Shown in pieces: positions 1-1,612 of a stretch of 64,000 nucleotides of DNA; positions within the stretch are counted from its first letter, which is position 1, and every line of letters starts with the position of its first letter. Both the position numbers and the translations under genes were made by a program. This DNA is from an uncultured Caryophanales bacterium (GTDB lineage Bacteria; Bacillota_I; Bacilli_A; RFN20; CAG-826): positions 1 to 64,000 of the forward strand of contig CAMJPB010000002.1 in assembly GCA_946407815.1 (NCBI GenBank), given 5' to 3'. The notes below the pieces were generated by a model. That model was not told where the DNA came from and made no database searches. It saw only the letters and a list, made by a program, of their open reading frames with translations.

Positions 1-74
1 ATGATTACCTGGATGTAGATGATGATTACCTGGATGTAGATGATGATTACCTGGAAGTAGATGATGATTTCTAA
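1..74 (+). CDS. 3' end of a gene with an acidic heptad-repeat tail (partial)
   Basis: Reading from base 3 gives an open frame that ends at TAA 72-74 and is already open at the window edge. The 21-bp unit is present three times in a row and encodes the heptad DYLDVDD (third copy DYLEVDD), ending in DDDF. The tail is strongly acidic and would be disordered or cation-binding. The rest of the protein lies left of the window, so its function cannot be named. A chance open frame over a tandem repeat is possible, but the in-frame 21-bp period favours a real C-terminus. Confidence 0.5.
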   Translation, partial: DYLDVDDDYLDVDDDYLEVDDDF

Positions 75-359
75 TCCTATAATTATGAATCTCATTAACA
101 ATATATGTATCCAAGGGATGCATTCTTGATCGACCGCTAGGAGTCGCTTTTTCTTCCTTGGTAATATATAAATAATAAAGATAGTCGCGAGACCTCTTAA
201 ATTTTACTACTGCTAGACGGTCTGATTTTCATACTGAGGACCGGCTTACCTATTAAGCGTTTTTTTGCAGGATGAGATATTGACCTTCTATTTTAGATAT
301 TACGTTAGGGAGGCAAAGCGAATTGCCCAAAGTAACTATCCAAAAAGGAGGTTTTATTT
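75..359 (+). other. Non-coding, structured region upstream of an IS110-type start; candidate bridge-RNA region
   Basis: There is no convincing ORF. Several short stem-loops are visible: CGAC/GTCG around 130-145, CGGTC/GACCG around 218-243 with a 16-nt loop, and GGCAA/TTGCC around 312-327. The region ends at a strong AGGAGG ribosome site (347-352) in front of an IS110-like start codon. In IS110-family elements the long non-coding left end carries the bridge RNA. Assigning that role here is inference from position and structure only. The left boundary of the element is not defined. Confidence 0.35.
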
Positions 360-404
360 ATGCCTACTTATTTTGTGGGTATCGATGTCAGCAATAGGCT
401 TTGA
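360..404 (+). pseudogene. Truncated IS110-family transposase (N-terminal 14 residues)
   Basis: The ATG at 360 follows AGGAGG by 7 nt and gives MPTYFVGIDVSNRL and then TGA. The YFVGIDVS stretch is the usual N-terminus of IS110-type DEDD transposases (RuvC-like fold), with the first catalytic Asp in GID. The frame breaks right after this, and the next gene at 475 belongs to an unrelated IS3-type element. The remnant was probably cut by insertion or deletion. The identification rests on one short motif plus the upstream layout. Confidence 0.5.
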
Positions 405-474
405 TATCTTTTTTACGCTTCACGCTTTATGTAAACACAATTAGTTAAAATTAAGAAAAGGAAGGAAAATAAAA

Positions 475-1464
475 ATGATCAAAAAAGCAACACTAATTAA
501 TGAAAACGAGAAGTTAAAAAGAGAAATTTATATATGGAGAAATATCGGAATAGGAATTAATGCTTCTGTAAAAGAAAAGGAAGAAGCAACGAAAACGTTT
601 TTGGAACAATATAATGAATATAATTATTGTGAGGTGTGTAGAGTTATTCATTTAAGCAAAGGAACATATTTCAATTTTATTAATAATAAAGTTGAGAAAA
701 CTACATATGAGATTAAAGACGAAAGTTTATTAAAAGAAATTAAAATCGTTTTTGAAGAATCGAATAAAATTTATGGAGTCGATAAAATCAATGCAGTTTT
801 AAGGAAAAAGGGAATTATTACTTCAGCACGAAAAATAAGTCAACTCATGAAATCTAATAATCTAATTAAACAAAACGTCATGAAAAGACCGAAACCACAG
901 GTAATTAGAGAAAGATGCAACTACTTTAGAAACCTTTTAAATAGACAGTTTGATCAGCAAGAACCGAACAAAGTCTGGGTGAGTGATTTACTAGAAATCA
1001 ATCTAAGCGGGGTAAAATATTATCTCTGTGTCATCCTTGATTTGTTTGCAAGGAAGGTTCTTTCATGGAGAGTATCACATAGAAAAAGCGATAACCTCAC
1101 TATTAATGCAATAAAAGAGGCTTTTGAAATAAGAAACGAACCGGTAGGATTGATGTTTCATAGCGATCAAGGCCTAGAATTTACCACTCATAATTTTATG
1201 AATACATTAAAAGTTTTAGGCATAAAACAATCATTTTCGTATCCCGGTTCACCAAATGATAATGCTGCAATGGAAGGATTCTATTCTATATTAAGAAGAG
1301 AGGAAGTTAATATTAATATTAATAAATACGTAAACTCACGAGGCATTAGAGAATATTTAACAAAATATTTTTACTTTTATAACAATAAAAGAATTCATCG
1401 ATCTCTAGATGATAGAACTCCTCAAGAAGTTGAAGATGAATGGTTCAAAAAGCACTCAAATTAG
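475..1464 (+). CDS. IS3-family transposase (OrfB-like, DDE integrase core)
   Basis: This 329-residue protein has a short coiled/basic N-terminus, an HTH_21-like segment (IYGVDKINAVLRKKG) and an rve core. The catalytic triad is visible as D in WVSDLLEI, D in MFHSDQGLEF and E in NAAMEGFYSILR. A start at 475 is supported by AAGGAAGG at 459-466. IS3 elements normally carry an OrfA in front with a frameshift; none is seen here, and the 70 bp before the gene hold only the broken IS110 remnant. I could not find paired terminal inverted repeats, so the element may be incomplete at its left end. The core residues look intact, so the enzyme may be functional if ends exist. Confidence 0.85.
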   Translation: MIKKATLINENEKLKREIYIWRNIGIGINASVKEKEEATKTFLEQYNEYNYCEVCRVIHLSKGTYFNFINNKVEKTTYEIKDESLLKEIKIVFEESNKIYGVDKINAVLRKKGIITSARKISQLMKSNNLIKQNVMKRPKPQVIRERCNYFRNLLNRQFDQQEPNKVWVSDLLEINLSGVKYYLCVILDLFARKVLSWRVSHRKSDNLTINAIKEAFEIRNEPVGLMFHSDQGLEFTTHNFMNTLKVLGIKQSFSYPGSPNDNAAMEGFYSILRREEVNININKYVNSRGIREYLTKYFYFYNNKRIHRSLDDRTPQEVEDEWFKKHSN

Positions 1465-1480
1465 GGTGCTAATTTTTTTT
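1451..1480 (+). terminator. Rho-independent terminator overlapping the end of the IS3-type transposase
   Basis: AGCAC and GTGCT pair around a small loop that contains the stop codon, followed by a run of eight T. It serves the + strand transposase. Confidence 0.6.
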
Positions 1481-1489
1481 ATTTTATTA

Positions 1490-1526
1490 ATAAAATAAAA
1501 CAAGTTTTGAAGTCTCAAAACTTGTT
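1490..1526 (-). terminator. Terminator of the gltX-tRNA-Glu transcript
   Basis: A perfect 12-bp stem (AACAAGTTTTGA with its complement, loop AGTC) is followed on the minus strand by a T-rich tract. It lies 12 nt past the tRNA CCA end. Confidence 0.8.
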
Positions 1527-1537
1527 AGTATCACGTT

Positions 1538-1612
1538 TGGTGACCCTACTGGGAATCGAACCCAGGATTCAACCTTGAGAGGGTTGCGTCTTAGCCGCTT
1601 GACCATGGGGCC
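1538..1612 (-). tRNA. tRNA-Glu (anticodon CTC)
   Basis: 75 nt including an encoded CCA. The anticodon arm CAACC-CTCTCAA-GGTTG gives CTC for GAG codons. The T arm has the standard TTCGATT loop. It begins 27 nt after the stop of gltX, so the synthetase and its tRNA substrate are likely co-transcribed. Confidence 0.93.

What the first reader, a model, noticed from the sequence alone, without database searches (positions are those of the whole stretch)
75..474. IS110 5' end with a possible bridge-RNA region, cut by other DNA
AGGAGG, ATG and MPTYFVGIDVS mark an IS110-type transposase start, preceded by ~280 bp of non-coding, hairpin-rich DNA as expected for the bridge RNA of this family. The reading frame stops after 14 codons. 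Such a fossil can preserve a bridge RNA whose loops show the former target.
Basis: partly seen in the sequence, partly recalled or inferred. Interest (0 to 1): 0.5.

Follow-up and report, generated by a model that had tools for sequence, protein, structure and literature searches.

The report
IS110 fossil with promoter-reading bridge RNA
A broken jumping gene here still carries its guide-RNA region, and intact relatives show that such guides steer the element to the spot between a gene's promoter and its start codon; the fossil itself is inactive, but it led to an unusual targeting habit.

Summary
Window 89-394 is the left end, bridge-RNA (bRNA) region and first codons of an IS110 element. It is 87-90% identical over about 300 bp to copies in 8 other genomes of the bacterial family, 5 of them with a complete transposase frame. 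The frame stops after 14 codons and is joined to an IS3-family transposase unit. The same fossil recurs in G021, G121 and (3' part only) G071, beside a tRNA-Glu gene.

The idea that the loops show the former target is supported, mainly through relatives. Intact copies insert just after a -10 box (36 of 42 left flanks, 24 exact TATAAT) and just before a start codon (19 of 19 right flanks). The left guide matches each copy's own flank (p = 1e-5 and 4e-4 in two subgroups) and an empty rimM site in a relative (10 of 12). The fossil's flank and right guide fit. Its own left guide has decayed to TTAAAT, while two sister fossils keep TATAAT.

The fossil is dead. The new part is an IS110 group programmed onto leaderless-type promoters, whose right end supplies a replacement -10 box.

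The parts
78..83 (+). TATAAT, -10 box left of the insertion; left half of the former target
   Evidence: 36 of 42 distinct left flanks of related copies have such a box 5-8 nt before the core
89..90 (+). AT, presumed core at the left junction (first two bases of ATG in the former target)
   Evidence: Left flanks of other copies end here; A or G in first place
89..359 (+). IS110 left end with bridge-RNA region
   Evidence: 87-90% identity to 8 non-fossil copies over 89-394; alignment A2
183..246 (+). Target-binding loop: stem arms 183-189/193-196 and 236-239/240-246; one base of the 3' arm lost in this copy
197..208 (+). Left target guide TTAAATTTTACT (TATAATTTTACT in sister fossils of G021 and G121)
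   Evidence: Only stretch that carries own-flank information in relatives (columns 117-122 of 250)
225..232 (+). Right target guide ATTTTCAT, complementary to ATGAAAAT
   Evidence: Position in loop; right guide variants agree with own right flank in relatives (read by eye)
265..278 (+). Presumed donor guides: TTGCAGG (compare right end TTGTAGG) and ATGAGAT (reverse complement of left end ATCTCAT)
   Evidence: Comparison with the right ends; inference
360..404 (+). Truncated IS110 transposase frame, 14 aa; IS110 similarity ends at 394
475..1464 (+). IS3-family OrfB-type transposase, 329 aa, the DNA joined to the fossil
   Evidence: PF00665 E = 2e-22; NF033516 E = 2e-74
1538..1612 (-). tRNA-Glu (CTC), neighbour of the carrier unit

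Best explanation
Window 89-394 is the 5' remnant of an IS110 element that had inserted directly behind a -10 box (TATAAT, 78-83). Its transposase is gone, so it no longer moves by itself and is carried along in a LysR-MATE-IS3 unit beside tRNA-Glu. In intact relatives the bridge RNA's left guide copies the -10/spacer region of the target and the right guide is complementary to the start codon and the next bases. The element inserts at the junction between -10 box and start codon of a leaderless-type gene. The target's -10 box then reads into the element's left end, and the element's right end (GATAATTGTAGGT or GATAATAGTTGT) gives the target gene a new -10 box at similar spacing. Shown by sequence: ends, flanks, guide-flank agreement, an empty site, the loop stem. 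Inferred: RNA expression, recombination by the bridge-RNA mechanism, transcription starting at the core and at the ATG.
For: Shared 5' region and intact relatives. Left flanks with -10 box 28 of 34 (subgroup A, four being copies of the fossil) and 8 of 8 (B), slid controls 2-7 of 34 and 0 of 8; right flanks ATG 19 of 19. Left guide agrees with own flank, p = 1e-5 (A, 19 rows, 13 guides) and 4e-4 to 1e-3 (B, 8 rows); signal confined to columns 117-122 of 250 tested. Empty rimM site in G177, TTAATATAGAAAT|ATGGAATACG, against G167 guide TAATATAGATTT. Stem pairing 94.9% of cells, 7 double changes against 3.0 shuffled. Recurrence of the fossil at 94-98% in three further genomes. No close recombinase found in G000, G021, G071, G121.
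Against: The window copy's own left guide fits its flank poorly (rank 11 or 7 of 15). Registers slide from -5 to +1, unlike the fixed register described for IS621; for subgroup B no single register is significant (best p about 0.10). L080's left guide, L081's right guide and one G114 right flank do not fit. Several copies are broken at contig ends, so their guide was assigned at genome level. Folds of single sequences are weak (z -1.5 and -0.82). No RNA or activity data.
Confidence: 0.82

Rival explanations
1. An ordinary IS110 fossil. Relatives are found between promoter and start codon only because insertions elsewhere were lost by selection, and the guide resemblance reflects shared AT-richness and the common TATAAT.
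For: The hosts are AT-rich and most guides and flanks share TATAAT; registers slide.
Against: Guide-flank agreement survives removal of the hexamer (A p = 5e-5 to 2e-4, B p = 0.02 to 0.04); rare variants agree (TAAAAT in G089 guide and flanks, TAATATAGA in G167); 19 of 19 right flanks are ATG, which loss by selection alone would not give for intergenic insertions.
Confidence: 0.12
2. The fossil is a deletion derivative that kept both ends (395-474 being a diverged right end) and could be moved by a recombinase acting in trans.
For: CTTTGATAT near 399 and the following bases resemble the right end of intact copies (score 35, z about 3 against shuffles).
Against: 37 of 3190 other 81-base pieces of the window align as well; such a right end would be far more diverged than the left part; no separate copies of such a derivative appeared in the search of 224 genomes.
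Confidence: 0.1
3. The remnant was kept because it serves the IS3-type unit, as promoter or leader of its transposase.
For: The junction is kept at 94-98% in four genomes of three genera.
Against: The whole unit is equally conserved, so common recent descent explains it; in G177 the island keeps only about 46 bp of the IS110 end and no such transposase; the IS3-type gene has its own ribosome-binding site and relatives without the IS110 piece.
Confidence: 0.07

Closest known systems
IS110/IS621 bridge-RNA recombinases (Durrant et al. 2024, PMC11208160; term-search passages and section 5 read)
   Same: DEDD plus Tnp_20 transposase, long left end with an RNA of two guide loops, left guide like the top strand and right guide like the bottom strand of the target, core included, promoter formed across the joined ends of the circle
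   Different: Described targets such as REP elements; here the target is a -10 box plus start codon, the right end brings a -10 box for the target gene, and the guide-to-core distance varies
seekRNA-guided IS1111/IS110 elements (Siddiquee et al. 2024, PMC11187229; term-search passages and section 13 read)
   Same: Each IS selects its own site through the RNA; natural reprogramming between related IS was reported (ISEc11 and ISXne4)
   Different: No promoter-start codon class in the parts I read; here near-identical copies differ in guide but stay on one class of site
IS900 of Mycobacterium (recalled, no call supports the detail)
   Same: Recalled to insert between a ribosome-binding site and a start codon
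   Different: Left half here is a -10 promoter box, not a Shine-Dalgarno sequence

Membership tests
IS110 family (IS110 group) | Transposase with PF01548 and PF02371 | tested here: met
   Met by the intact relatives (L010); the fossil itself keeps only 14 codons, so it is a remnant
IS110 family (IS110 group) | Long left end before the gene, short right end | tested here: met
   271 bp before the ATG (window); about 95 bp after the stop in relatives
IS110 family (IS110 group) | Bridge RNA with target loop whose guides agree with the target | tested here: met
   Met for relatives; fossil copy partly decayed
IS110 family (IS110 group) | Donor loop whose guides agree with the element's own ends | tested here: inconclusive
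   TTGCAGG and ATGAGAT resemble right and left end; read by eye, no statistics
IS110 family (IS110 group) | Circle intermediate and RNA-guided recombination | not testable with these tools
   Needs an experiment
Rfam families | Match above gathering score in window 1-480 | tested here: not met
   only sub-threshold matches outside the tRNA genes
Non-autonomous IS110 derivative with both ends | Recognisable right end at 395-474 | tested here: inconclusive
   37 of 3190 background pieces score as high

The most novel reading that the evidence does not exclude
A clade of IS110 elements in gut Bacilli practises promoter exchange. Its bridge RNA reads the -10 hexamer and spacer with the left guide and the start codon with the right guide, so donor junction and target are both 'minus-10 plus start point'. 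After insertion the host promoter drives the element, and the element's right end drives the host gene as a leaderless mRNA. Guides are rewritten often but stay on this class of site, with a sliding distance between guide match and crossover.
Probability: 0.5. Interest if true: 0.75.

Novelty: new variant of a known kind. Interest (0 to 1): 0.6.

Why it matters
If right, bridge RNAs in nature have been tuned to a functional class of site (leaderless promoters) rather than to a repeat sequence, and the element repairs what it breaks by lending its own -10 box. That would give a natural set of recombinases for insertion exactly in front of start codons, a natural record of how bridge-RNA guides change, and a sequence-only sign of leaderless genes in uncultured gut bacteria. 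The fossil also shows that a dead IS110 can keep a readable, if fading, record of its target.

Tried and rejected
Rejected or left open: (1) the spacer 395-474 as an IS110 right end (37 of 3190 background pieces score as high); (2) the fossil as a working guide in trans (no close recombinase found in G000, G021, G071 or G121); (3) Rfam and plasmid DNA searches found nothing useful; (4) the search for the L010 target gene in its genus found no orthologous site; (5) L136 was considered for an empty site, but its left flank lies inside another IS110 on the opposite strand (seen by eye); (6) the G177 version of the island keeps only about 46 bp of the IS110 left end, and the 325 bp beside it match nothing else held.

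Counts and dropped rows: one search used 15 subgroup A rows (L015 left out as a copy of the same fossil; L001 = window and L003 kept) and 6 subgroup B rows. One search used 19 subgroup A rows (L001 and L015 left out) and 8 subgroup B rows. One search used 8 sites (W and L015 left out; two alignment rows without a usable flank dropped). Copies whose contig ends before the guide were not usable. Right-guide agreement was read by eye: the base after ATG agrees in 7 of 8 subgroup A and 6 of 7 subgroup B cases.

Literature: no paper describing IS110 elements aimed at leaderless promoters was found, on the strength of searches only; of the papers listed I opened two. For the tRNA-associated IS3 group, searches listed nothing to the point (listings only). 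IS900 is from recall.

Full report
What is in the window. The window is the start of contig C2 of a 737-kb genome, 45.5% complete. Bases 1-74 are the end of a reading frame of an island gene (its relatives are 103 and 118 aa). Then comes TATAAT at 78-83, and from 89 the left end of an IS110 element. At 360 an ATG behind AAGGAGG opens MPTYFVGIDVSNRL, which stops at 404. Similarity to other IS110 copies ends at 394. From 475 an IS3-family OrfB-type gene follows, then a tRNA-Glu gene on the other strand.

Relatives of the fossil. A search of 224 genomes of the bacterial family with window 85-405 gave matches in 24. Besides the window itself, 10 genomes match over most of the stretch: two sister fossils (G021 at 93%, G121 at 86%) and eight others at 87-90%. 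Of those eight, five hold a complete transposase frame (G089, G085, G167, G123, G147), two a frame cut by a contig end (G114, G160) and one a frame with a stop (G067). The product is a 403-416 aa transposase with both IS110 domains. Named hosts of the closest loci are Bacilli, Bacillales and Erysipelotrichaceae metagenome-assembled genomes.

The carrier. The junction of IS110 fragment, IS3-type gene and tRNA-Glu recurs at 94-98% identity in G021, G121 and G071, which with G000 belong to three genera. In G071 the contig begins at window position 313, so only the 3' part is seen. In G021 and G121 the shared unit is about 4.5 kb and includes a LysR regulator and a MATE-like transporter; its left end carries repeated CTAACA motifs. 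The tRNA is Glu-CTC in G000, G121 and G071 and Glu-TTC in G021.

Where intact relatives insert. Across 34 distinct left flanks of subgroup A (the fossil's group; four are copies of the fossil) and 8 of subgroup B (about 52% identical transposase), a hexamer agreeing with TATAAT at 5 of 6 or better ends 5-8 nt before the core in 28 and 8, and exactly in 21 and 3. The same test slid upstream finds 2-7 of 34 and 0 of 8. All 19 distinct right flanks begin with ATG, and many are starts of recognisable genes such as rimM, dnaD, a response regulator, Sir2, an acyltransferase and lipoproteins (names given by eye from the translations). The joined site is therefore TATAAT, a short spacer and ATG, the layout of a leaderless gene. 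Such genes exist in a host: 13 of 217 frames on 300 kb of G089 have an exact TATAAT 4-9 nt before ATG or GTG; a distance control with fixed first starts gives 12 in that window and 0-9 in the others. The right ends finish in GATAATTGTAGGT (A) or GATAATAGTTGT (B), so the target gene receives a -10 box at a similar distance. More distant IS110 copies (L082-L084, L089, L090) end likewise.

The guides. In the alignment of 12 subgroup A 5' regions most columns are nearly constant, but a 12-nt stretch, 197-208 in the window, varies. It lies on the 5' side of an internal loop in the consensus fold. Two helices of that loop are paired in 94.9% of cells across subgroups A and B, with 7 cells changed on both sides against 3.0 in shuffles (eight sequences typed from earlier outputs; the apical stem was left out because the aligner shifts it by one column). 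Within subgroup A alone covariation is slight (2 of 67 pairs). The 12-nt stretch resembles each copy's own left flank more than other flanks: subgroup A p = 1e-5, subgroup B p = 5e-4 to 1e-3, by guide group 1e-5 and 4e-4. With the hexamer removed p = 5e-5 to 2e-4 (A) and 0.02 to 0.04 (B). A scan of 250 columns on 8 sites finds the strong signal only at columns 117-122. Examples: L011 guide TATAATATTTTT and flank TATAATATTTTTGT; two G089 flanks with TAAAAT and a TAAAAT guide. The right guide ends in CAT, and the base before it agrees with the base after ATG in 13 of 15 cases (by eye), for example ATTTACAT with ATGTATAAC and ATTTCCAT with ATGGAATAC.

An empty site. The G167 copy sits before rimM. 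Its guide is TAATATAGATTT and its left flank TTAATATAGAAAT. The rimM gene of G177, same genus, has TTAATATAGAAAT directly before ATGGAATACG and no insertion; G159 has TTATTATAGAAAT. More distant orthologues in the same list of 14 lack a clear -10 box. A second G167 flank, AAATAAATATAGAT, also contains AATATAGA.

The fossil read in this light. Its left flank is TATAAT TATGA|AT, and its right guide TTTTCAT would pair with ATGAAAA, so it probably once sat before a start codon of that type; that half is lost. The window copy's left guide is TTAAATTTTACT, while G021 and G121 have TATAATTTTACT. The window copy has also lost one base of the loop stem. No close recombinase was found in G000, G021, G071 or G121, with the caution that G000 is incomplete. 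It is a decaying record, not a working guide.

What speaks against or limits this. No expression or activity data exist here. The guide-target register slides, which departs from the fixed register of IS621; for subgroup B no single register is significant. L080's left guide and L081's right guide do not fit, nor does one G114 right flank. Copies broken at contig ends were paired at genome level. The 395-474 spacer has no proven origin. Single-sequence folding is weak.

Mechanism proposed. Durrant et al. (PMC11208160, section 5) report that the IS110 circle forms a promoter across the joined ends. Here the right end places a -10 box before the core, so donor junction and target share one layout. 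A crossover at the core would leave a promoter on both sides: the host's -10 box reading into the bridge RNA and transposase, and the element's -10 box reading into the host gene. This is inference from sequence.

Noticed in passing
window 475-1612; L036, L037, L039, L049, L099-L113: The IS3-type transposase belongs to a group whose gene ends beside, and convergent with, the 3' end of a tRNA gene: 13 of 21 loci by ARAGORN (Glu, Thr, Leu, Met, Ser, Trp, His), with the element apparently ending in CA or CG, then 2 nt, then TGG, the complement of CCA. It looks like a tRNA-end-targeting IS3-type element.
   Followed up: partly
L065 12472-16984, L066 7258-11794: About 4.5-kb unit with LysR, MATE-like transporter, a small unknown protein and the IS3-type gene, 94% identical between two genera and beside different tRNA-Glu genes.
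   Followed up: partly
L002 (G000:C1, about 402298-403443): The window's own genome holds one intact IS110-family gene of a distant group (395 aa).
   Followed up: no
L136: A subgroup B IS110 copy has its left flank inside a subgroup A transposase gene on the opposite strand and its right flank at a Sir2-type gene start, suggesting recombination between two IS110 sites.
   Followed up: no
L068 13530-14370 (G177): A version of the island beside tRNA-His keeps the small gene and only about 46 bp of the IS110 left end, without the IS3-type gene.
   Followed up: partly
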